44,945 bases of DNA. It comes from an uncultured Alistipes sp. GTDB lineage: Bacteria > Bacteroidota > Bacteroidia > Bacteroidales > Rikenellaceae. Under the pieces are notes generated by a model, which ran no database searches, was not told the origin of the DNA, and saw nothing but the letters and a program-made list of their open reading frames with translations. Position numbers and translations under genes: made by a program. Location of the stretch: positions 1-44,945 of the forward strand of contig CALUKH010000015.1 of the NCBI GenBank assembly GCA_944321185.1, given 5' to 3'. Below, piece by piece: positions 35,779 through 44,945 of the stretch; position 1 is the first letter of the stretch; each line of letters opens with the position of its first letter.

Positions 35779-36069
35779 ATGGGAATTTCGGTTTTGCTAT
35801 TCGGCCTGTTGAGCGGCTCGCTGCTCGCGGTGCTGGTGGGAATCATCGGCAGCCGGCGCCGCATCGGCTTCGGTTGGGCCTTTTTGTTGAGTCTGATCTT
35901 CACGCCGCTTGTGGGGCTGATCGTGGCGCTGCTGACCGATCCGCTGCCCGATTGCGAACGGCGCTGGGGATGTATCGGGACCGTTGTGGCCGTGCTCGGA
36001 ATCCTTTGTCTGATTGTCTTTCTGATGCTGCTTCTGACCGGCGGCGCCATGCTGATGGCAGCCCTGTAG
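35779..36069 (+). CDS. Small membrane protein with two or three helices
   Basis: A 96-residue hydrophobic protein. It has a first helix (VLLFGLLSGSLLAVLVGIIG), a short basic loop (SRRRIGFGW), a second helix (LLSLIFTPLVGLIVALL) ending in DPLPDCERRWGC, and a final helix rich in Leu and Val. The loop-helix part resembles a small uncharacterised membrane family common in Bacteroidales. Function unknown. It lies 59 bases after the methyltransferase and 32 before the AraC regulator, on the same strand. Confidence 0.7.
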   Translation: MGISVLLFGLLSGSLLAVLVGIIGSRRRIGFGWAFLLSLIFTPLVGLIVALLTDPLPDCERRWGCIGTVVAVLGILCLIVFLMLLLTGGAMLMAAL

Positions 36070-36101
36070 AGGTTGTTGCACCGCATCTTGTCCTGTGTCA
36101 A

Positions 36102-36968
36102 ATGAACCGCCCAATCCGGAAATCGCTGCCCCTGCATCGGGCCGTGCGGATGACCGAATCCGGCATCTTCCTGAAAAGAATCGGACCCGGAATCGTCGTT
36201 CAGCCGATCCGTTACGCCCATCGCGACGACTATTACCTTTTCGGATTCGTCGAGGAGGGCAGCTGTCGTATCGGGCTTGATTTTGAGGAGTATGACCTTC
36301 ATGCGGGGGAGATGTTCTGCGTTCGGCCCGGGCAGGTCCACTGCTTGGTCGATGAACAGACGGTGCGGGGTGCGGTACTTTTTGTCGATGCCGCATGCAT
36401 TGATGCCGGAGACAGACACGTGCTCACCGAATTCGCCTTCCAACCCCATCCAATGCCTCTTGAACCGTCGTTGAGGCATGAGCTCGGGGAGCTGTTTGCC
36501 ATGATCGACCGTCGTGTCGGGGCACGGCAAACTTCCGATGCGGAGGAGACCGGACGGTTGATCCGGCTGCTGGCCAGTGCGGCCGTGGGAATGATTGCCG
36601 GAGCCGTGCGGCAGAGCCTCCGGGGCCGTTCGGCGACGGGTCGTCAGGTCGATATGACCCTCGCGTTCCGCGAATTGCTCGACCGCTCCCCGCTTCTCGA
36701 AGGCGGTCCGGCCCGCTATGCCGCAGAGTTGCATGTCTCGACGGGTTATCTTAACGAGGCGGTGCGGGCCGTGGCGGGTACGAGTGTCGGCCGTTGCATC
36801 CACGAGGAACTGATGCTGAGAGCCCGGCGTCTCCTGATCCATACGTCGATGAACGTCCGTGAGATCGCCTTCGAACTGGGTTTCGGCGACGCGGCCTACT
36901 TCACGCGCCTCTTCACGAAGGTGGTCGGAATCAGCCCCTCCTCCTTCCGCCGCCAATACCTCGGATAG
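36102..36968 (+). CDS. AraC family transcriptional regulator
   Basis: A 288-residue regulator. The N-terminal cupin-like sensor domain (about 10-120) has GSCRIGLDFEEYDLHAGEMF and VRPGQVHCL, typical of ligand-binding AraC proteins. The C-terminal double helix-turn-helix (about 190-288) includes AAELHVSTGYLNEAVRAVAG and the second-HTH signature VREIAFELGFGDAAYFTRLF followed by GISPSSFRRQYL. The ligand is unknown. It could control the DUF4405 gene that follows 80 bases downstream behind a probable promoter, or the upstream small membrane protein, but neither is shown. Start ATG 36102 fits the domain boundary; the frame is open further upstream. Confidence 0.9.
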   Translation: MNRPIRKSLPLHRAVRMTESGIFLKRIGPGIVVQPIRYAHRDDYYLFGFVEEGSCRIGLDFEEYDLHAGEMFCVRPGQVHCLVDEQTVRGAVLFVDAACIDAGDRHVLTEFAFQPHPMPLEPSLRHELGELFAMIDRRVGARQTSDAEETGRLIRLLASAAVGMIAGAVRQSLRGRSATGRQVDMTLAFRELLDRSPLLEGGPARYAAELHVSTGYLNEAVRAVAGTSVGRCIHEELMLRARRLLIHTSMNVREIAFELGFGDAAYFTRLFTKVVGISPSSFRRQYLG

Positions 36969-37048: not shown

Positions 37049-37504
37049 ATGGACAAACGCAAACTCAATCTTTGGATCGACCGGGCGCTGGTTCCGGTCT
37101 TCGTCGGGGTGATCTGGACGGGGCTCGAACTGCATGCCGCCAGACACGTCGCTGATCCCCTTTTCGGGCATCGCTGGTCCGTGTCGCATACGGTCGTCTC
37201 GCTCTTGTTCCTGCTCCTGGCGGGAACCCATGTCTATGGACATTGGGGCTGGTATCGTGCGCTGACGACCGTGGGCTGCAAGGATCGGCACCGCCGGATG
37301 GTGCTGTTGTTCAGCCTTGTTTTTCTGCTTGCGGCGGTTACGGGTCTCCTCCTGTTGCTGTGCGGTGCCGGGTGTGCCCTTTATCTGGGCAAGTTCCATT
37401 ACCTTCTGGGTCTGATCTTCGGCATAATGGGGCTGCTGCACCTCCTCAAACGGCTGCGCATTCTTTTCGGTATCGCGAAACCGCGAGCCGCGAAGAACCG
37501 CTGA
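37049..37504 (+). CDS. DUF4405 membrane protein, cytochrome b-like
   Basis: A 151-residue protein with four hydrophobic segments. DUF4405 proteins resemble the cytochrome b / FeS-cytochrome membrane core with conserved histidines in helices. Candidate haem ligands here are the His residues in WSVSHTVVSLLF, GTHVYGHWGWY and KFHYLLGLIFG, with LLHLLKRL near the end. The role is inferred to be electron transfer in the membrane, without a known partner. It follows the AraC gene and ends 32 bases before a hairpin; the next genes are convergent. Confidence 0.8.
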   Translation: MDKRKLNLWIDRALVPVFVGVIWTGLELHAARHVADPLFGHRWSVSHTVVSLLFLLLAGTHVYGHWGWYRALTTVGCKDRHRRMVLLFSLVFLLAAVTGLLLLLCGAGCALYLGKFHYLLGLIFGIMGLLHLLKRLRILFGIAKPRAAKNR

Positions 37505-37590: not shown

Positions 37591-38172
37591 CTAAAGTCCG
37601 AAGACGTGGTAGATCAGGATGCCGGCTGCAGCCGAGAGGACGATCAGCAGGATGGGATTCACCTTGCGCCACGAGCCGATGAAGACCCCGCCGAAGAGCA
37701 CCCAGCTCCAGGCATCGATGAAGTTCTGCTCGTCGGGCTCCGTGCTGTGGGGGAAGATCAGCAGCAGGGCCGCGGCGGCGATCATGCCGATCACCACGGG
37801 ACGCATGCCCCGCATGGCACCCTCGACCAGCCGGTTGTTCTTGAGCTTCAGGAAGAATTGCGCCACGAGGATCATGAGCGTGAGCGACGGCAGGCAGACG
37901 GCCAGCGTTGCGATGGCCGATCCCAGCACGCCGCACCACGCGTAGCCGGTCTCCAGACCGACGGTGTAGCCGACATAGGTGGCCGAGTTGATGGCGATGG
38001 GGCCGGGGGTGATCTGCGAGATGGCGACGATGTCGGCGAACTGCGCATTGGTGAGCCACTGGTGCTGTACGACCACCTCGTTCTGGATGAGCGACAGCAT
38101 GGCATAGCCGCCGCCGAATCCGAAGAATCCGATCTTGAGATACGAAACGAAGAGTTGCCAGAGGAGAATCAT
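37591..38172 (-). CDS. Chromate transporter family protein (short CHR), first of pair
   Basis: A 193-residue CHR-domain membrane protein with about six helices. The signature FGFGGGYAMLSLIQNEVV near the N-terminus and PGPIAINSATYVGYTVG are typical. Short CHR proteins often occur in pairs with opposite membrane orientation that act together, exporting chromate in studied cases. Where chromate is unlikely, as in the gut, the natural substrate may be another anion. It lies 13 bases after the second CHR gene, which lies 3 bases after hyfI, so these three form one operon in the order hyfI-chr-chr. Confidence 0.88.
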   Translation of the reverse strand: MILLWQLFVSYLKIGFFGFGGGYAMLSLIQNEVVVQHQWLTNAQFADIVAISQITPGPIAINSATYVGYTVGLETGYAWCGVLGSAIATLAVCLPSLTLMILVAQFFLKLKNNRLVEGAMRGMRPVVIGMIAAAALLLIFPHSTEPDEQNFIDAWSWVLFGGVFIGSWRKVNPILLIVLSAAAGILIYHVFGL

Positions 38173-38185
38173 GGTCGGAGCGAAT

Positions 38186-38752
38186 TTATGCCTTGGGTGA
38201 GTTTTTGTGTTTTCCGATCCGCGGGGCGACGGCCAGCTCCCAGGCGATGCCTCCGGCGGCGCCGGCCACCAGCACCCAGATCGGTGACCAGCCAAGTCCC
38301 CAGACGGCCAGAGCCGCGGCGGCGATGATGAAGAACATCGACCAGTGCATGCCGCGCGCCAGCGAGATCACCGGTCCGATGATCAGCGCCACGACGGCCG
38401 GACGCATCCCCTTGAAGGCGGCGTCGACCACCGGATTGTGGCGGATGTCGGCGAAGAAGAGGGCGATGATGAGGATGATGACGAACGACGGCACGACGAT
38501 ACCCAGCAGGGCTGCTGCCGCACCGCGCAGTCCGCGCATCTTGTAACCGACGAAGACCGACGTGTTGAGTGAAATGGGCCCCGGAACCGACTGGGCCAGG
38601 GTCAGCAGGTCGAGGAATTCCCGCCGTTCGATCCAGTGGCGGTTGTCGATCACCTCGCGTTCGATCAGGGGGATCATGGCGTATCCGCCGCCGAAGGTGA
38701 AGAGGCCGATCTTGAAGAACGACAGAAAGATCGTACGCAGACGTTCCATCAT
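38186..38752 (-). CDS. Chromate transporter family protein (short CHR), second of pair
   Basis: A 188-residue CHR-domain protein paralogous to the one at 37591. Signature TFGGGYAMIPLIEREVI followed by PGPISLNTSVFVGYKM. The two are the two halves of a heteromeric transporter by family analogy. The start is the first of two adjacent ATG codons at 38750-38752. The hyfI stop lies just 3 bases upstream, so it is co-transcribed with hyfI. Confidence 0.88.
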   Translation of the reverse strand: MMERLRTIFLSFFKIGLFTFGGGYAMIPLIEREVIDNRHWIERREFLDLLTLAQSVPGPISLNTSVFVGYKMRGLRGAAAALLGIVVPSFVIILIIALFFADIRHNPVVDAAFKGMRPAVVALIIGPVISLARGMHWSMFFIIAAAALAVWGLGWSPIWVLVAGAAGGIAWELAVAPRIGKHKNSPKA

Positions 38753-38755
38753 GAA

Positions 38756-39520
38756 TCAGAGGCGTTTTTTGTGGCCCAGCAGCGTGCGCAGACCATCGAT
38801 GTAGATCATTGGGTGGGTCGGAGCTCCGGGGAGCCAGAGGTCGGGCGTGTGCGAATCGAGGAAACTGCGGTCCAGGGCGCGGCTCTCGGCAAAGAGTCCT
38901 CCCGAGCAGGCCTCCGTGCCGCACATGACGAGGATTTTCGGTTCGGCGACCGCGTCGTAACAGATTTCGAGCGCCTCGGCCATGTTGGCCGTGATCGGGC
39001 CCGAGACGACCACGCCGTCGGCATGGCGCGGCGAGGCGGTGAAGCCGATGCCGAAGCGACCGAGATCGAAGTTGACGTTTCCCGTGGCATTGAGTTCCAT
39101 TTCGACCGAGGCGTCGCCGCCGGCCGAGACTTCGCGCAGTTGCAGCGCACGGCCGAAGCAGCGGCGGATTTCGGGCCGTACCTGTTCGGGATCGAACGCC
39201 ACGCGGGTGTCGCCGGCATGGAGAACAAGCCCTTCGCGGGTAGGTGAACCGATGCGGTAGTCGTTCGTGAAGCGCACGTTGCGCGGCGCCACCCGGGCAC
39301 ACGCTCCGCAGAAGAGGCAGCGCCCCAGATCGAGCGTCAGCGGATCGGCCGTGAAGGCGCCCGTCGGGCAGATGGCCTGGGCGTATTCGGCCTCGGTGGT
39401 ATCTTCGGTGAAGGTCAGCTCGGGGCGGCCCCGGAACTCCTCGGTCAGCTGGACGGCATCGAGATCCTCGATGGCCTGACGGCCGTGGCTGCGCAGAACC
39501 CGTATTTTCGGTAGAATCAT
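38756..39520 (-). CDS. hyfI: HyfI/NuoB-like subunit fused to a half-ferredoxin, all proximal-cluster cysteines lost
   Basis: A 254-residue protein homologous to HycG/HyfI and NuoB, fused to an N-terminal HyfH-like ferredoxin remnant. The core FTASPRHADGVVVSGPITANM and the following segment are clearly HyfI-type. The four proximal [4Fe-4S] ligands of the family are missing: by alignment Ala145 and Asn148 (family CxxC), Glu203 (in GTEACSGG, family GxCAxSGG) and Ala233 (LPGAPT, family PGCP). In the ferredoxin part Cys68, Cys71 and Cys74 plus Cys51 remain, exactly one cluster's ligands, while those of the other cluster are gone. It has its own promoter and is followed by two CHR genes. The homology is sound; the function is unknown. 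Confidence 0.85.
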   Translation of the reverse strand: MILPKIRVLRSHGRQAIEDLDAVQLTEEFRGRPELTFTEDTTEAEYAQAICPTGAFTADPLTLDLGRCLFCGACARVAPRNVRFTNDYRIGSPTREGLVLHAGDTRVAFDPEQVRPEIRRCFGRALQLREVSAGGDASVEMELNATGNVNFDLGRFGIGFTASPRHADGVVVSGPITANMAEALEICYDAVAEPKILVMCGTEACSGGLFAESRALDRSFLDSHTPDLWLPGAPTHPMIYIDGLRTLLGHKKRL

Positions 39521-39540
39521 GGTCGCAATCTTTATGCCCG

Positions 39541-39571
39541 CAAAAATACGGAAATCCCCCGGAACCTACAA
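39541..39571 (-). promoter_or_regulatory. Promoter of hyfI-chr-chr
   Basis: On the minus strand: TTG (complement of 39569-39571), 20 bases, TATTTTTG (complement of 39541-39548), close to the full Bacteroidota promoter form, 21 bases before the hyfI start. Confidence 0.7.
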
Positions 39572-39593
39572 GCGCTTTTCGGGCTTTTGCACG

Positions 39594-39635
39594 AAAACAC
39601 GAACCGGGGTTCCGTGTCGGGAACTCCGGTCCGTG
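39594..39635 (-). terminator. Terminator after the pectinesterase-like gene
   Basis: A 16-bp stem with one G-U pair and one mismatch (arms 39598-39613 and 39620-39635), followed on the minus strand by TTTTCG. It lies between the pectinesterase stop and the hyfI promoter. Confidence 0.8.
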
Positions 39636-39714
39636 GGAGAAAAGGAAAATTGAATGATGGGAGAGTCTCTGTAAGAAGCGTGTGAAAGCGCTTGTCGGCC
39701 TCCATTCGCGCGGA

Positions 39715-40833
39715 TTATCGACCGGCGGGGTCGGTGAACGCCTCGGCCGGGAGCCAGTCGGAACCGTTCTCCGGAGCCGCCTCCCGGGCGAAAATCGTTG
39801 CCACGGTATATTCGGCGGCCTCCTCGTCGGTGAGCTGACGGCCTCCGTTGGCCCGCTGTGCGAGACGGTCGGCCGCAGCGCCCTCGCCCGTACACCGGTA
39901 TTCGGCGAAGAGGGCCGGCGAAGCCGACATCGTGGTCCAGCCTTCGGCCCGCAGGGCGGCCGGCTCCTCGCAGCGCACGAAGACCGCACGCGGCGCATTC
40001 TGCCACGGACGTCCCAGGTGGAAGTACGAGAATTTCGAGCCGTTGAAGTCCACCTCGCCCGTCGCCGGACAGGTGATCGTGCAGTCGAGGCAGACGATGC
40101 CGAAACGGTGATCCTCCGGGGTCGAGGGGGCGGTCAGCACACTGTTGTTGCGGTTGACGTGGAGCGTGCAGCGGTCCAGCAGGATCGTCGACGAGCCGAA
40201 GATGAAGTCGACGTTGCCCTCGACGTAGCAGTCGCGCAGGTAGACGCGTCCCGTACCGCGGCCGAAGAAGGTGTCCTGATAGCCCGTGATGCGGCAGTCG
40301 TAGAAGGCCGCGCGGTCGCTTTCGATCCGTACGGCGACGGCCTGCGTGTTGTTGCCGTCGGACGAGATGTTCTCCTGGCTGTTGGCGTAGCTGTTGGCGA
40401 TGGTGACGCCGCAGGCCGTGAAGTCGTCGGCATCGATCAGCAGCGTCTGGCTCTGCCACGTGCCGAGCGTGCCGCCCTGGCCGTCGTCGTGGCCCGCATA
40501 GTCGTCGTAGGTGAGGATGCACGTGGCGGCGTCGTCGCCGATGAGCGTGACGTGGGGGTGTTTCGACGTCAGCGAGACCTTTTCATAATAGGTCCCCGGG
40601 CGCAGGCGTACGATGTGGGGTTTGCCGTCGACGGGCAGGGCGTCGAAGGCCTCCTGGAGCGACGCATAGTCGCCCGAACCGTCCCGGGCGACGGTGACGG
40701 TATGGATCTGCTCCTGCGACGAGCCGTCTCCGTGGTCGGGGTCCGGCGTCTCGGAGTCCGATCCGCAGGCCGTCATTGCGGTCAGGGCGAGCAGCGCCGC
40801 GCCGAGGTTAAGCATCTGTTGAGGCAGTTTCAT
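39715..40833 (-). CDS. Pectinesterase-like exported lipoprotein (CE8)
   Basis: A 372-residue carbohydrate esterase of family CE8. It starts with a lipoprotein signal (LLALTAMTACGSDSE) and a short linker (TPDPDHGDGSSQ). The body has the right-handed beta-helix entry motif VARDGSGDYASLQEAFDALP and all catalytic landmarks: GYQDTFF, GNVDFIFGSS (the two Asp) and LGRPW (substrate Arg). It should demethylate pectin at the cell surface or periplasm. The start is the ATG at 40831-40833. It lies between hyfG and hyfI on the same strand, bounded by a terminator on each side, and no other carbohydrate genes are near, which is unusual since Bacteroidota group them in PULs. Confidence 0.92.
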   Translation of the reverse strand: MKLPQQMLNLGAALLALTAMTACGSDSETPDPDHGDGSSQEQIHTVTVARDGSGDYASLQEAFDALPVDGKPHIVRLRPGTYYEKVSLTSKHPHVTLIGDDAATCILTYDDYAGHDDGQGGTLGTWQSQTLLIDADDFTACGVTIANSYANSQENISSDGNNTQAVAVRIESDRAAFYDCRITGYQDTFFGRGTGRVYLRDCYVEGNVDFIFGSSTILLDRCTLHVNRNNSVLTAPSTPEDHRFGIVCLDCTITCPATGEVDFNGSKFSYFHLGRPWQNAPRAVFVRCEEPAALRAEGWTTMSASPALFAEYRCTGEGAAADRLAQRANGGRQLTDEEAAEYTVATIFAREAAPENGSDWLPAEAFTDPAGR

Positions 40834-41003
40834 GATTCGTGGTTTTCGTTTCGGTTTTGCAACGACAAAGTTCGTCTTTTTCACCCGTCGGGGCGGGGAT
40901 TTTTTTGCGGAAAACAGGGATTTTTTGTCGTTCCTACCCTTCGCAGGCCTCCGGTCAGCCTATCACCGCACCCTTTGGGAGGCCGTGTCGTTGCCGGTGG
41001 ACG

Positions 41004-41033
41004 AAAAAGCCCCCGCCGTTTCGGGCGGAGGCT
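41004..41033 (-). terminator. Terminator after hyfG
   Basis: A 10-bp stem with one mismatch (AGCCCCCGCC at 41008-41017, GGCGGAGGCT at 41024-41033), which on the minus strand ends in GGGGCTTTTTCG. It lies 22 bases after the hyfG stop. The rest of the 222-base gap (40834-41055) holds T-rich sequence upstream of the pectinesterase gene and no recognised gene. Confidence 0.82.
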
Positions 41034-41055
41034 GAGTGTCGTGACCGACGGCTTT

Positions 41056-42585
41056 TCAGAGGTCGTGGCCGCAGTACGAAAGGTTGAAGCTCTTGTTGCA
41101 GATCGGGAAGTCGGAGATCCCCTCGCCGCGCACGGCCAGTGCCAGCGCCAGCCAGTTGTGCAGGCTCGGATCCTTGATGCGGCACGCCTCGATGTGCCCT
41201 TCGGCGTCGGTCACCACCACGTGGCACGTCTCGCCGCGCCACCCCTCGACCACGCCGAACGAAAGCGACGACGGCGTGAGCGAAGTCGTGTAGTCGGGTT
41301 CGTCACAGGGGTTCTCCACCGCGCCGTATTTTCGTTCGTAGATCTCCAGCAGATGGTCGATGTAGCGGGCCGACTGCAGCACCTCGCGGCAGCGCACCTC
41401 GAGGCGGGCCATCACGTCGCCCGTCTGTTCGACGACCGGCGTGTGGTGCAGACACTTCCCGTACGAACCCCACGGATGTGTCGTGCGGATGTCGCGAGCC
41501 AGACCGCTGGCACGGGCCGCCTGACCGACGCCTCCGATCCGTCGCATCTCCTCGCGTGGCACCACGCCGCACTGCTCGAAACGGGCCAGCAGCGAGGGTG
41601 ACGATTCGATATCGCGGCGCACCTCGTCGTAACGGCGGGCGATCCGGGCGACGTTCGTGCGGATCATCTCCGACTTGGCCGGCGTCATCGGATGGTCCGT
41701 GCCGTGGGGGCGGATCAATCCCTTGCCGAAGCGGTTGCCGCACCACGCCTGCGTGGTGTTGATCGTCATCGTGCGCAGCGCCTCGCAGGCCACCTGCCCC
41801 AACTGGTAGCCCGTATCCATCGACAGGGCGCCCGTATCGGCAATCTGCATGGCCATGCGCTCGAGTTCGAGGGCCACGGCCCGTTCGCGGTCGAGCTGTG
41901 CGGGGCGTTCGCGGTCGGTGAGCTTCTCGATCGCTTCGGCGAAGGCCGTGGCGTGGGCTACGGCGCTGTCGCCCGCAACGGCCTCGGCCAGGCACATCTG
42001 CCGCAGCCGGTTGTCCGTCGCCTGGAAGGCCGCCTCGACCCCGCGGTGCTGGTAACCCAGCGCAATTTCGAGGTGGAGCACCTGCTCGCCGTTGCAGATG
42101 AAGCGGAAGGCCCCCGGCTCGATGATCCCGGCATGGATCGGTCCCACGTTGACTTCGTGCAGCGAGTGGCCGGCCATCGTGTAGAAGGGGTAGTTCTCGA
42201 TCGAGCTCTGGCGGTTGTAGCGGTCGAAGGGGAAGCGCAGCGGCTTGGGCCACGGCTGACCGTCGAAGCGGATGCCGTAGCGTTCGGTGATGTCGCGTTC
42301 GAAGGGGTGCATCTGCGGGTGCAGGGCCGTGAGCGACGGCAGGGCCGTATCGTCGTAGTAGCCCGTGGCGTGGGAGGTGATCAGCACGCGCCCTTCGGCG
42401 TCGTCCAGCACCAGGGCGTAGAAGCGCATGCGGTCGCCGGACGGCAGGGCGAAATAGTGGCCCACGTGGTAGCGTTCGTCCGCCAGCCACGTGCGCATCA
42501 GTTCGTAGAACGAGGCGTAGGAGATCTCGGGGATCTCCTCCAGGCGCACGGCGCCCGAGGTATTGTCGGTTACGAGATAGTTCAT
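41056..42585 (-). CDS. hyfG: HyfG/HycE-like large subunit lacking the NiFe cysteines
   Basis: A 509-residue protein equivalent to fused NuoC and NuoD, as in HycE/HyfG. The NuoC-like part is at about 1-130 (HPFERDITERYGIRFDG) and the catalytic-subunit-like part follows (LGYQHRGVEAAF, LDRERAVALELERMA). In NiFe hydrogenases the L1 motif is RxCGxCG and the L2 motif DPCxSC. Here they read EAVAGDSAVAH (Cys replaced by Ala204 and Ser207) and FNLSYCGHDL at the very end (Cys replaced by Ser503 and Gly506; Cys505 is off position). No C-terminal tail for protease maturation follows. So it cannot bind a NiFe site in the known way. The start overlaps hyfF by 4 bases. Confidence 0.88.
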   Translation of the reverse strand: MNYLVTDNTSGAVRLEEIPEISYASFYELMRTWLADERYHVGHYFALPSGDRMRFYALVLDDAEGRVLITSHATGYYDDTALPSLTALHPQMHPFERDITERYGIRFDGQPWPKPLRFPFDRYNRQSSIENYPFYTMAGHSLHEVNVGPIHAGIIEPGAFRFICNGEQVLHLEIALGYQHRGVEAAFQATDNRLRQMCLAEAVAGDSAVAHATAFAEAIEKLTDRERPAQLDRERAVALELERMAMQIADTGALSMDTGYQLGQVACEALRTMTINTTQAWCGNRFGKGLIRPHGTDHPMTPAKSEMIRTNVARIARRYDEVRRDIESSPSLLARFEQCGVVPREEMRRIGGVGQAARASGLARDIRTTHPWGSYGKCLHHTPVVEQTGDVMARLEVRCREVLQSARYIDHLLEIYERKYGAVENPCDEPDYTTSLTPSSLSFGVVEGWRGETCHVVVTDAEGHIEACRIKDPSLHNWLALALAVRGEGISDFPICNKSFNLSYCGHDL

Positions 42586-43982
42586 GACAGGGCGATTTGA
42601 TCGATCAGTTCACGCAGCAGCTCCGGTTGCCAGAGCCCCAGCACCATGGCCACGACCAGCAGCGAGAGGGCCGACCACGACAGCGCCCGGTCGACCTTCG
42701 AGGGGTGGAGCTCATCCTGGTTGGGCTGGTAGCAGAGGCGGATCATGCGCGAGCAGAACGAGTAGATGACGATGCAGAGCAGGAGCAGCATCCCGGCGAC
42801 GAGCCACCAGCGTCCGCCGGCGATCGTCTCGCGCAGGATCATCAGCTCCGAGAGGAAGAGCGGCGAGGGCGGGAAGGCTACCAGAACGACCATGCCCGTG
42901 AGCAGGCCGACGGCTCCGACGCGGTTGATGTGGATGTAGTCGCCGATGCGGTTGATGCGGTATCCGTTGTAGACCTGCCGCACGACGGCCATCTGCAGGA
43001 AGAGGCTGCTCTTGATGAAGGTGTGGCAGACGACGTGGAACACGGCGGCCCAGGCTCCGAGGCCGCCCACTCCCAGACCGATGGCGGCGATGCCCATGTT
43101 CTCGACGGTCGAGTAGGAGAGGAAGCGCTTGTAGTTGTTCGTTCGGCGCAGGAACAGCGCGCCGATGACGAGCGACAGCACCCCGACGATCAGCAGCACC
43201 GAACGCACCCAGGCGAAGACCTCCGTCGGGGCCAGCAGGCGGTAGACGCGGAAGATGGCCAGGAATCCGGCATTGACCAGTCCGGTGGAGATCAGGGCCG
43301 AGGCGGGTGACGGCGCCGCGAAGTTGGCGTCGATGCCGACCGTATGCAGCGGGAAGAGCTCCACCTTGCAGCTGTAGCCGCAGAGGATCAGCAGGAAGGC
43401 GATCTTCAGGTAGAGGGCGTTGCCGCGCGGGGCGGCTTCGGCCACGGCCAGGTAGTCGAGCGATTCGCAGTCGGTGGCGGCGGCCAGCAGCAGGATGCCC
43501 AGGTAGGCCATGGCGATGCCCGTCGAGCAGACGAAGACGTATTTCCACGCCGCCTCGAGCGTCTGGGCCGTGCGGCGGTGGTAGATGATGCCGGCCGAGC
43601 AGAGCGTCGTGGCCTCGAGGAAGATCCACGTCACGGCCAGGTTGGCCGCGAAGTACGATCCGGCGATGGCCGTCGTCAGCAGCATGACCAGCCCCGAATA
43701 GGCGCGGGTCTGCTGCAGGTCGTTGTCGCGCAGGTAGGCCTCGGAGTGGAAGTAGGCGAAGGCCGAGACCACGCACAGCAGCACGTAGAAGAGTGTTCCC
43801 GGCGCATCGAACCGGAACCAGGCGGTCGATTCCTGCCCGTAGAGTCCGCCGAAGAGGATGACACAGGCGAAGGCCGCCTGTACGGCGTAGAAGAGTACGC
43901 CCGTGAGGAAGAGCTGCCGTTCGCGGCGTACGAGAAAGGCCGCCGAAGCGATCAGAATGCTTGCGATGAGGTAGGCGATCAT
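42582..43982 (-). CDS. hyfF: HyfF/NuoN-like proton-channel subunit
   Basis: A 466-residue protein with about 14 membrane helices, of the NuoL/M/N and Mrp antiporter family. The residues of the proton path are kept: Glu123 in IFLEATTLCSAG, Lys147 in AAWKYVFVCS, Lys206 in SCKVELFPLH with His213, Lys285 in NNYKRFLSYS, and His316/His320/Lys324 in HVVCHTFIKSSLFL. An intact channel points to real ion pumping or ion-gradient use by the complex. It begins 4 bases after the hyfE stop and its stop overlaps hyfG, so translation is likely coupled. Confidence 0.9.
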   Translation of the reverse strand: MIAYLIASILIASAAFLVRRERQLFLTGVLFYAVQAAFACVILFGGLYGQESTAWFRFDAPGTLFYVLLCVVSAFAYFHSEAYLRDNDLQQTRAYSGLVMLLTTAIAGSYFAANLAVTWIFLEATTLCSAGIIYHRRTAQTLEAAWKYVFVCSTGIAMAYLGILLLAAATDCESLDYLAVAEAAPRGNALYLKIAFLLILCGYSCKVELFPLHTVGIDANFAAPSPASALISTGLVNAGFLAIFRVYRLLAPTEVFAWVRSVLLIVGVLSLVIGALFLRRTNNYKRFLSYSTVENMGIAAIGLGVGGLGAWAAVFHVVCHTFIKSSLFLQMAVVRQVYNGYRINRIGDYIHINRVGAVGLLTGMVVLVAFPPSPLFLSELMILRETIAGGRWWLVAGMLLLLCIVIYSFCSRMIRLCYQPNQDELHPSKVDRALSWSALSLLVVAMVLGLWQPELLRELIDQIALS

Positions 43983-43986
43983 GGCG

Positions 43987-44616
43987 TCAGTCCTTAACGT
44001 TGGTCAGTGAATCGGCGTCGTCGGCGTGGAGTTTGTCGTCGATCTTGGTGAAGAAGATGCCCAGCATCAGCACCGAGATGAGGATGTCGAGCAGGATGGC
44101 GAAGTTGATCAGCAGGGGCATCTCCACGCCGATGGCCGTCGAGAAGAGGAACACGCCGTTCTCGATGACCAGAAAACCGATCATGTGGGAGAAGATCCGC
44201 TGCCGCATCACGATGAGGATCAGTCCGCTGAGCAGCGAGTAGAGGGCCACGCCGAAGAAGATCAGGTCGATCGTCGAGTCGGCGATGTAGTAGGTCAGCG
44301 AGGCGCTCACGGCCAGGGCCACGAGCGACAGCAGCAGCGATCCCGACTGCGACGATCCCGAACGCCGGACGCGGTTGATGCGCGTGCGGCGGATCACGGC
44401 GAAGAGCAGCCACGGAACCAGAATGCCCTTGAACAGGAGGGTTTCGAGGGCCACGAAGGCCAGCTCGGCGGGGTTGGCGGCGTGCAGCCGAACCAGGGCG
44501 ATGCCGAAGAGCAGCCACCCCTGCAGTCCGATCAGCGAGGCGAAGTTGCGGAAACGCTCGGTGATCGACAGATAGACGAGCGTCACGACATAGAGCAGAA
44601 TCAGCGGCAGAATCAT
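43987..44616 (-). CDS. hyfE: HyfE/NuoK-like membrane subunit
   Basis: A 209-residue membrane protein with six or seven helices, combining a NuoK-like part (IGFLVIENGVFLFS, with the conserved Glu) and extra helices as in HyfE. The sequence PLLINFAILLDILISVLMLG near the C-terminus is also typical. It forms the link between the channel subunits and the HyfC arm. The start ATG overlaps the hyfC stop by 4 bases. Confidence 0.88.
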   Translation of the reverse strand: MILPLILLYVVTLVYLSITERFRNFASLIGLQGWLLFGIALVRLHAANPAELAFVALETLLFKGILVPWLLFAVIRRTRINRVRRSGSSQSGSLLLSLVALAVSASLTYYIADSTIDLIFFGVALYSLLSGLILIVMRQRIFSHMIGFLVIENGVFLFSTAIGVEMPLLINFAILLDILISVLMLGIFFTKIDDKLHADDADSLTNVKD

Positions 44617-44945
44617 TGGATACCGATGTTAAGTTGCAGCAGGTAGCCCGTGAAGAAGACCAGGGCGGCCAGTGCCGTGATGGTGAGGATGAAGGTGGTG
44701 TTGCGGACGAGCTTGTTGCGGGCCTGGGTCGATTCGACGATGCCGACCGAGAGCCCCGTGAGCAGCACGGCCAGCGGTGCGGCGAACCACCACCGCGGGC
44801 AGACGGCCGCCGCCACGGCATCGGCCGCCAGCATCGACAGCGCGGCGCTCTTGAGCCACGTCGAGATCTTGATGTAGGCCAGATCGACGCCGCAGTAGTC
44901 GAGACACATCACCTCGTGGATCATCGTCAGTTCGAGGTGCGTGCG
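44613..44945 (-). CDS. hyfC: HyfC/NuoH-like membrane subunit (partial, N-terminus beyond window)
   Basis: The C-terminal 110 residues of a NuoH-like protein, HyfC or HycD. The window edge cuts it within the conserved loop THLELTMIHEVMCLDYCG, which in NuoH faces the quinone or catalytic domain; the Glu pair is conserved. Three more helices follow and it ends at NIGIQ. Upstream genes, presumably hyfB and perhaps others, lie outside the window. Confidence 0.88.
   Translation of the reverse strand, partial: RTHLELTMIHEVMCLDYCGVDLAYIKISTWLKSAALSMLAADAVAAAVCPRWWFAAPLAVLLTGLSVGIVESTQARNKLVRNTTFILTITALAALVFFTGYLLQLNIGIQ

What the first reader, a model, noticed from the sequence alone, without database searches (positions are those of the whole stretch)
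38756..44945. Complex I / hydrogenase-4-like membrane complex in which every known metal ligand of the catalytic pair has been lost
Seen in the sequence: HyfG lacks all four cysteines that hold NiFe in group 4 hydrogenases (positions read Ala204, Ser207, Ser503, Gly506), and HyfI lacks all four ligands of the proximal [4Fe-4S] cluster (Ala145, Asn148, Glu203, Ala233). The membrane arm is intact, with Glu123, Lys147, Lys206 and Lys324 of the proton path in HyfF. Established: complexes of this type are grouped as energy-converting hydrogenase-related (Ehr); they lack the NiFe motifs and their reaction is unknown. Inference: this is a maintained ion-translocating machine whose driving reaction is not hydrogen chemistry. 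Loss of the proximal cluster as well would block the usual electron route and suggests an even more altered mechanism.
Basis: partly seen in the sequence, partly recalled or inferred. Interest (0 to 1): 0.85.

Follow-up and report, generated by a model that had tools for sequence, protein, structure and literature searches.

The report
Energy complex missing its electron wire
Gut bacteria of the Alistipes group keep a relative of respiratory complex I and hydrogenase-4 that has lost both its nickel-iron site and the iron-sulphur cluster that normally feeds it electrons, yet the machine is kept intact by selection, so it probably moves ions in some way other than the textbook one.

Summary
The observation largely holds. 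HyfG lacks all four NiFe cysteines (80 of 80 distinct sequences).

NiFe loss is ordinary: it defines the known Ehr complexes. N2 loss is not: 19 of 21 Ehr-type loci outside the family keep all four cysteines. It happened at least twice. In the family, two of the four columns are always acidic (93 of 93) and one sometimes keeps a lone Cys (10 of 93). The same genome keeps a normal complex I.

This is not decay: median dN/dS is 0.19-0.27, membrane proton-path residues are conserved, and HyfG and HyfI occur together in 62 of 150 genomes and part in 2. No HypD was found in 150 genomes.

Best reading: a new variant of Ehr, an ion-translocating machine with its usual electron route cut and its headpiece acting as a gate. 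The variant is well supported; the mechanism is inference.

The parts
44613..44924 (-). C-terminal third of HyfC (NuoH-like); the frame runs off the contig end at 44945, and HyfB and the rest of HyfC are missing only because the contig stops
   Evidence: 98% identical to the end of the 304-aa HyfC of L026
43987..44616 (-). HyfE membrane subunit (209 aa)
   Evidence: NCBIfam hydrogenase 4 membrane subunit, E 1.2e-12, below its curated cut-off; 100% in L026
42582..43982 (-). HyfF antiporter-like subunit (466 aa) with Glu123, Lys147, Lys206, Lys285, His316, His320, Lys324
   Evidence: PF00361 E 7.9e-39; these residues invariant in 77 of 77 sequences
41056..42585 (-). HyfG large subunit (NuoC+NuoD fused, 509 aa) without NiFe cysteines
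   Evidence: PF00346 E 3.4e-30 and PF00329; aligned with HycE, HyfG, NuoCD
41965..41976 (-). Ala204-Gly-Asp-Ser207, where HycE has its first NiFe CxxC
   Evidence: coordinates from the frame
41068..41079 (-). Ser503-Tyr-Cys-Gly506, where HycE has Cys531-Tyr-Ser-Cys534
   Evidence: coordinates from the frame
38756..39520 (-). HyfI small subunit (254 aa): N-terminal HyfH/NuoI-like ferredoxin domain fused to a NuoB/HycG-like domain
   Evidence: PF01058 E 3.3e-15 on residues 140-246; NCBIfam ferredoxin-subunit matches within residues 21-112, below their cut-offs
39299..39370 (-). Cys51 ... Cys68-x2-Cys71-x2-Cys74, the one four-cysteine [4Fe-4S] site that is kept
   Evidence: 77 of 77 distinct sequences; also in L131-L148, the 18 HyfI with this domain outside the family
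39104..39115 (-). Asp136-x-Ser138-Val139, where N2/proximal-cluster cysteines stand in HycG and NuoB
38912..38914 (-). Glu203 at the third N2 ligand column
   Evidence: E 69 / D 24 of 93
38822..38824 (-). Ala233 at the fourth N2 ligand column
   Evidence: A 68, N 15, T 9, S 1 of 93
39715..40884 (-). pectinesterase-family lipoprotein gene standing between HyfG and HyfI; not judged part of the complex
   Evidence: PF01095 E 2.7e-48; a match in 8 of 110 loci, one of them the window itself
38186..38752 (-). ChrA-type transporter half 1, directly downstream; association is only suggestive
   Evidence: PF02417 E 1.4e-54; adjacency counts
37591..38172 (-). ChrA-type transporter half 2 (start chosen by comparison with relatives)
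   Evidence: PF02417 E 1.1e-51

Best explanation
It is an Ehr-type complex (HyfB-C-E-F-G-I) of Rikenellaceae that has lost, beyond the NiFe site, the N2/proximal cluster and one of the two clusters of its ferredoxin domain. One [4Fe-4S] site remains. Shown: gene content, the losses, their phylogenetic pattern, conservation of the membrane arm and of a carboxylate pair at two of the four N2 ligand columns, purifying selection. Inferred: with N2 gone, electrons from the remaining cluster cannot reach the HyfG pocket at useful rates by the usual hops, so the machine is no longer an electron-driven pump of the complex I kind. The HyfG-HyfI headpiece would be kept as a conformational gate and structural cap on an H+ (or Na+) translocating membrane arm. 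Asp136 and Asp/Glu203 would stand in for the cluster's negative charge or form a protonatable switch, and the remaining cluster would stabilise the head or sense redox state. It would then work like the redox-free relatives of complex I (Mrp antiporters; the DAB2 carbon pump), though it is not a member of those families.
For: No Cys at columns 136, 203 and 233 in 93 of 93 family sequences; column 139 is Cys in 10 of 93 and other residues in the rest; columns 136 and 203 are carboxylate in 93 of 93. The 15 basal members have only 0-3 Cys in the whole NuoB-like domain, so that domain cannot supply a Cys4 cluster there. The four Cys of the one remaining site are invariant. Membrane-arm residues are invariant in 76-77 sequences. 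Median dN/dS 0.19-0.27 for all six subunits. HyfI type in 62 of 150 genomes, each with HyfG; HyfG in 64. In one single-contig genome HyfG, HyfC, HyfI and HyfF lie apart, all open. HypD in 0 of 150 family genomes. Flanking genes checked are housekeeping types, none a recurrent oxidoreductase partner. Precedent for a complex I-type proton subunit coupled to non-redox chemistry: DAB2, PMC13144422 (abstract read).
Against: Ion transport without redox was not shown by anything here. The invariant four-Cys site would be odd baggage if no electron were ever handled. The HyfG pocket keeps hydrogenase-like proton residues (Glu156 = HycE Glu193, Arg450 = HycE Arg478), which suggests that some chemistry may persist there. 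No complex model could be built, so distances are inferred from relatives. An electron might enter HyfG from an unknown partner that bypasses HyfI; partners encoded away from the operon were not searched for.
Confidence: 0.42

Rival explanations
1. Still a redox pump with a rebuilt wire: the ferredoxin-domain cluster takes electrons, and a different metal or cofactor held by Asp136, Asp/Glu203 and neighbours (or a bound flavin, quinone or soluble substrate) replaces N2 as the last step to the HyfG pocket.
For: Carboxylates at columns 136 and 203 in 93 of 93; in 7 of 15 basal members and in L131 the set reads Asp, Cys, Asp, Asn (read by eye), which could bind a single metal ion; Cys51/68/71/74 invariant; the pocket keeps Glu156 and Arg450.
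Against: In the 78 Alistipes-type sequences Cys at column 139 remains in 1 (L037) and Asn at 233 in 1, so no ligand set of more than two of the four columns is conserved; no cofactor subunit was recognised among the flanking genes checked; the loop with Asp136 is modelled with pLDDT under 50.
Confidence: 0.3
2. Redox-gated rather than redox-driven: the single cluster is a sensor that switches ion flow through the membrane arm on or off with ferredoxin or cell redox state.
For: One cluster site kept in the same position in every HyfI with this domain that I examined, while the sites on either side were lost more than once.
Against: No direct evidence; a purely structural role of the cluster explains the same conservation.
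Confidence: 0.15
3. Ordinary Ehr complex misread: the N2 cysteines are merely shifted and a cluster still forms from other cysteines.
For: Alistipes-type HyfI has 2-5 Cys in the NuoB-like domain, e.g. Cys187 and Cys200; Cys at column 139 in 10 of 93.
Against: Basal members of the same clade have 0-3 (L175 none; L165, L168, L169, L174, L176, L181 one each); Cys200 is not Cys in 15 of 93; the alignment block is gap-free.
Confidence: 0.05
4. Relict: a decaying hydrogenase-like operon with no current function.
For: Patchy presence: HyfG above 100 bits in 64 of 150 family genomes; single in-frame stops in HyfG of G026 and HyfI of G106.
Against: Median dN/dS 0.19-0.27 over six subunits; HyfG and HyfI together in 62 genomes, parted in 2; dispersed copies open.
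Confidence: 0.03

Closest known systems
[quoted passage not shown] the defining 2013 paper was not available)
   Same: Same kind of subunits, no NiFe cysteines, HyfG nested among other NiFe-less large subunits
   Different: N2/proximal cluster lost and replaced in part by carboxylates; one ferredoxin-domain cluster lost; 19 of 21 Ehr-type loci outside the family keep N2
E. coli hydrogenase-4 / formate hydrogenlyase (HyfABCDEFGHI, HycBCDEFG)
   Same: Homologous HyfB, C, E, F, G, I; HyfG model matches 7z0s_E (HycE) best among solved structures
   Different: No NiFe site, no G1 cluster; none of the genes from HyfB to HyfI is HyfD or HyfA; HyfH is fused to HyfI and reduced to one cluster site
Respiratory complex I
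   Same: Membrane arm and headpiece homologous; E-channel and antiporter residues kept
   Different: No NADH-module gene seen in the operon, no N2; the quinone-site Tyr column is Gly205 (alignment; role of the Tyr recalled)
Mrp antiporters (recalled) and DAB2 (PMC13144422, abstract read)
   Same: Complex I-type proton-conducting subunits working without a redox chain
   Different: They lack the HyfC/HyfG/HyfI core (recalled); DabA2 is carbonic-anhydrase-like (abstract)

Membership tests
Ehr complexes | Large subunit homologous to group 4 hydrogenases but without the NiFe cysteines | tested here: met
   80 of 80 distinct sequences without Cys at the four columns
Ehr complexes | Set of antiporter-like, NuoH-like, NuoB-like and NuoC/D-like subunits | tested here: met
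   HyfB-C-E-F-G-I order in relatives; HyfB and most of HyfC lie beyond the contig end in the window itself
Ehr complexes | Phylogenetic placement among Ehr large subunits | tested here: met
   ML tree of 50 HyfG sequences, NiFe-less relatives against two E. coli hydrogenase outgroups; no reference Ehr from the literature was in it
Ehr complexes | Conserved N2/proximal cluster (usual in the loci read; not known to me to be part of the definition) | tested here: not met
   0 of 93 family sequences keep more than one of the four cysteines and 10 keep one, against all four in 19 of 21 loci outside the family
Group 4 [NiFe] hydrogenase | Four NiFe cysteines in the large subunit | tested here: not met
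Group 4 [NiFe] hydrogenase | hyp maturation genes in the genome | tested here: not met
   HypD 0 of 150 family genomes, own included; controls ring in 4 of 14. Other hyp genes were not searched; the own genome is 79% complete
Respiratory complex I | N2 cluster in the NuoB-like subunit | tested here: not met
   the same genome's own NuoB keeps it
Mrp antiporter / DAB (works like) | Ion movement without electron transfer | not testable with these tools
   needs vesicle or flux assays

The most novel reading that the evidence does not exclude
A complex I-family machine that evolution has disconnected from its electron wire: the N2 cluster is replaced by a fixed Asp and Asp/Glu pair that mimics or switches its charge, and the quinone/NiFe head is reused as a gate for redox-free ion transport, with a parallel loss in a Deinococcota plasmid lineage.
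Probability: 0.4. Interest if true: 0.85.

Novelty: new variant of a known kind. Interest (0 to 1): 0.64.

Why it matters
How electron arrival at N2 and the quinone pocket drives distant proton channels is the central open question of complex I. A natural relative that keeps the coupling head and the proton channels but has no N2 offers a direct test of whether that coupling element can work without an electron. It also narrows the possible functions of Ehr complexes, which the papers seen call unknown or only suspected, and it concerns a gut genus. In 52 of 150 family genomes it is the only NuoB-like protein found, although some of those genomes are incomplete.

Tried and rejected
ChrA link: the ChrA pair lies within 400 bases after HyfI in 25 of 77 loci (those of L001-L080 with HyfI), 5-7 kb away in 8, not seen in 29 with at least 5 kb of sequence, undecided in 15. 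HyfI-ChrA-ChrA stand together, away from the rest, in A. muris and a near relative (L155, L157). But ChrA occurs in 128 of 150 family genomes, in 57-59 of 64 with Ehr and 69-71 of 86 without (two negatives were not listed), so I do not use it as evidence of function.

Mutual exclusion with complex I: 10 both, 52 Ehr only, 24 complex I only, 64 neither; Fisher p 0.12, no phylogenetic correction. Rejected.

Partner enzyme beside the operon: flanking ORFs of L001-L080 were clustered; many clusters are false reverse-frame ORFs. Ten flanking genes, most of them representatives from that list, were searched in Pfam: an RNA methyltransferase, a sodium:alanine symporter, thymidylate synthase, a metallophosphoesterase, DUF4290, a thioredoxin-like protein (9 loci), dihydrofolate reductase (8 loci), a sigma-54 activator, one without a match and seryl-tRNA synthetase. 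No flavin, quinone or molybdenum enzyme recurs among them, but not every neighbour was searched.

Missing HyfI in L007, L008, L018: first looked like a HyfI-free complex; HyfI was found elsewhere in two of these genomes; the third (1.0 Mb held) has none.

Structure: HyfI model mean pLDDT 82.2, residues 136-150 under 50; HyfG 73.5, residues 129-142, 144-160, 167-180, 349-363 and 474-509 under 50, so part of the ligand regions is poorly modelled. No coordinates are given out and no complex could be modelled, so distances between sites were not measured. Foldseek finds NuoB/HycG-type and HycE/NuoCD-type matches.

Literature: the listings show no title or abstract on an N2-less Ehr; passages of five papers were read. 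The 2013 defining paper (Marreiros et al.) was not read, nor were supplements.

Rows dropped and mixed: HyfI uses 77 of 80 loci (three without HyfI in the stretch); its 77 and HyfG's 80 are distinct sequences, window included. The 93 are the window, 77 loci and 15 basal members. One search counts 13 N2-plus loci; L138 was left out as a near copy of L137, and L145, L146, L148-L151 were not counted with them (four of these six printed per column). In one search the reference for HyfB and HyfC is L026, which is thereby counted twice. One search uses 50 chosen sequences; over-long ORF starts of L147-L151 were trimmed to the last 430-500 residues. HyfG of L167 enters as one of its two pieces. medians use pairs with dS 0.2-1.5 only; the pairs are not independent.
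Full report
What was given and what is there. The window is placed at C15:1-44945 of a 1.97-Mb, 79%-complete genome, and HyfC is cut at its end. Its nearest named relatives are Alistipes (L026, HyfG 97% identical); Alistipes belongs to Rikenellaceae. On the minus strand lie the end of HyfC, HyfE, HyfF, HyfG, a pectinesterase gene, HyfI and two ChrA-type genes. Relatives give the order HyfB-HyfC-HyfE-HyfF-HyfG-HyfI, with no room for HyfD between HyfC and HyfE.

Checking the ligands. HyfG aligned with E. coli HycE, HyfG and NuoCD has Ala204, Ser207, Ser503 and Gly506 where the hydrogenases have their four NiFe cysteines. Across 80 distinct sequences none is Cys. The segment Val131-Arg155 aligns without a gap to HycG/HyfI, so the columns are Asp136 and Val139 (NuoB's consecutive pair falls on Ser138-Val139). 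In one search itself the E. coli rows slipped at columns 145 and 148; the register rests. Of the 77 loci with HyfI, one (L037) has Cys at column 139; none has Cys at 136, 203 or 233.

HyfI residues 1-110 are a HyfH/HycF/NuoI-like ferredoxin domain. A full domain of this kind has eight cysteines for two clusters. Here Cys51, Cys68, Cys71 and Cys74 are invariant in 77 of 77, and the other four columns (41, 44, 47, 78) are not Cys in the window. By the usual pairing rule (recalled) those four form one cluster, the one nearer N2 (N6b-like, recalled). The wire has thus been trimmed on both sides of a single remaining site.

How unusual the N2 loss is. Of 395 genomes sampled from the phylum, 16 besides the own genome hold a HyfG at E <= 1e-60. 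I read the HyfI of those 16 and of five plasmid-borne loci from Variovorax, Allomeiothermus, Bradyrhizobium, Azospirillum and Paraburkholderia. Nineteen of the 21 keep all four N2 cysteines. The two exceptions are L131 (Asp, Cys, Asp, Asn) and L148, Allomeiothermus (Thr, Asp, Glu, Ser). None of the 21 HyfG has a Cys at the four NiFe columns (ligand segments). In an ML tree of 50 HyfG sequences the Rikenellaceae form one clade (SH-aLRT 99.7 / bootstrap 100). L131 pairs weakly (33/70) with an N2-keeping relative beside them, and Allomeiothermus branches far off (95.5/98). N2 was thus lost at least twice, if it cannot be regained. L133-L135 keep N2 but lack the motif of the first ferredoxin-domain cluster, so sites were lost in steps; the middle one stayed in all 18 HyfI with this domain outside the family.

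The replacement is not random. In 93 Rikenellaceae sequences column 136 is Asp 92 / Glu 1 and column 203 is Glu 69 / Asp 24, while columns 139 and 233 show six and four residue types. Asp136 uses both codons (41 GAC, 36 GAT of 77), so it was held while silent sites changed. Four further sequences (L184-L187) and two from A. muris and its near relative (L155, L157) agree, read by eye. Seven of 15 basal members read Asp, Cys, Asp, Asn (by eye), so a single Cys outlived the others in part of the clade. Basal members have 0-3 Cys in the whole NuoB-like domain, so that domain cannot supply a Cys4 cluster there. The control is internal: the same genome's complex I keeps N2 motifs in NuoB and both four-Cys motifs in NuoI (L183).

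Maintained, not decaying. Median pairwise dN/dS is 0.22 for HyfG, 0.19 HyfI, 0.26 HyfF, 0.21 HyfE, 0.19 HyfC and 0.27 HyfB (the highest HyfB pair is 1.08). Glu123, Lys147, Lys206, Lys285 and Lys324 of HyfF, Glu140, Lys219, Lys298 and Lys349 of HyfB, and Glu134 and Glu199 of HyfC (L026 numbering for HyfB and HyfC) are invariant in 76-77 sequences; Asp192 of HyfC is D 74, E 3. Of 150 family genomes 64 have HyfG above 100 bits (counted by hand) and 62 have the HyfI type. All 62 are among the 64, and the two misses are fragmented genomes; one of them holds a piece of HyfI. A. muris (L007) has HyfI on another contig, 82% identical. In G013, one contig of 3.1 Mb, HyfG, HyfC, HyfI and HyfF lie at 1.22, 1.58, 1.61 and 2.08 Mb, all open; HyfE and HyfB were not sought there. 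Against: single in-frame stops in HyfG of G026 and HyfI of G106, an N-terminally short HyfG match in G033, and absence from more than half of the genomes.

Not a hydrogenase. HypD is found in 0 of 150 family genomes while the controls ring; PF00374 has no match in the own genome.

How it may work. In formate hydrogenlyase the relay hops are under 14 A, G1 in HycG sits at the N2 position, and HycE Glu193, Arg478 and Asp529 are assigned to proton handling at the active site (PMC9474812, passages). Here Glu193 and Arg478 correspond to invariant Glu156 and Arg450, whereas Asp529, called strictly conserved there, is Asn501. Without N2 the remaining cluster should be more than one hop from the HyfG pocket (inference from recalled complex I geometry; no complex was modelled). 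I therefore favour a machine no longer driven by electrons reaching the pocket: an ion translocator whose head acts as a gate, the acid pair standing in for the cluster's charge or acting as a protonatable switch. DAB2 shows that a complex I-type proton subunit can be coupled to non-redox chemistry (PMC13144422, abstract). The main rival is a rebuilt redox path using another metal or cofactor; the data do not exclude it.

Relation to the known. Ehr complexes are described as lacking the NiFe ligands, with function unknown or suspected (PMC6349859, PMC10284858, PMC7304191, passages). This is a member by subunits, NiFe loss and tree, and a new variant by N2 loss. The searches listed nothing on an N2-less form; the defining 2013 paper could not be read, so priority is not certain.

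Verdict. The NiFe loss is expected; the N2 loss with a fixed carboxylate pair in a maintained machine is the real finding. Interest 0.64; new variant of a known kind.

Noticed in passing
window 39715-40884: A pectinesterase-family lipoprotein gene (PF01095) stands between HyfG and HyfI; a match in 8 of 110 loci, one of them the window itself. In A. muris (L007 9952-11799, - strand) another beta-helix, pectinesterase-like ORF follows HyfG (by eye).
   Followed up: partly
window 37591-38752: A pair of half-size ChrA-type transporters directly follows HyfI; HyfI-ChrA-ChrA stand together away from the rest in A. muris, but ChrA is common in the family without the complex.
   Followed up: partly
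L148 8686-11135 (Allomeiothermus silvanus plasmid pMESIL01): Separate Ehr lineage whose HyfI has also lost N2 (Thr, Asp, Glu, Ser at the four columns) and keeps only the single ferredoxin-domain site; the plasmid holds a second, 99.6% identical copy over residues 1-271 of this protein.
   Followed up: partly
L147 3836-19359 (Variovorax sp. PBL-E5 plasmid): Two hydrogenase-4-like gene clusters about 3.4 kb apart on one plasmid; only the first was examined.
   Followed up: no
L007 9500-9859: Where HyfI is expected in A. muris, HyfG is followed by a short ORF that looks like a PAS domain (by eye).
   Followed up: no
HyfG Glu268, window 41784-41782: Glu268 is Gly in 13 of 13 N2-plus relatives and in L131 but Glu in 95 of 96 Rikenellaceae sequences (one X), a change tied to the family clade whose role is unknown.
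   Followed up: no
window 35874-36968 and 37049-37504: AraC-type regulator with a cupin domain and a DUF4405-like membrane protein (below its cut-off), on the + strand beyond the operon's downstream end.
   Followed up: no
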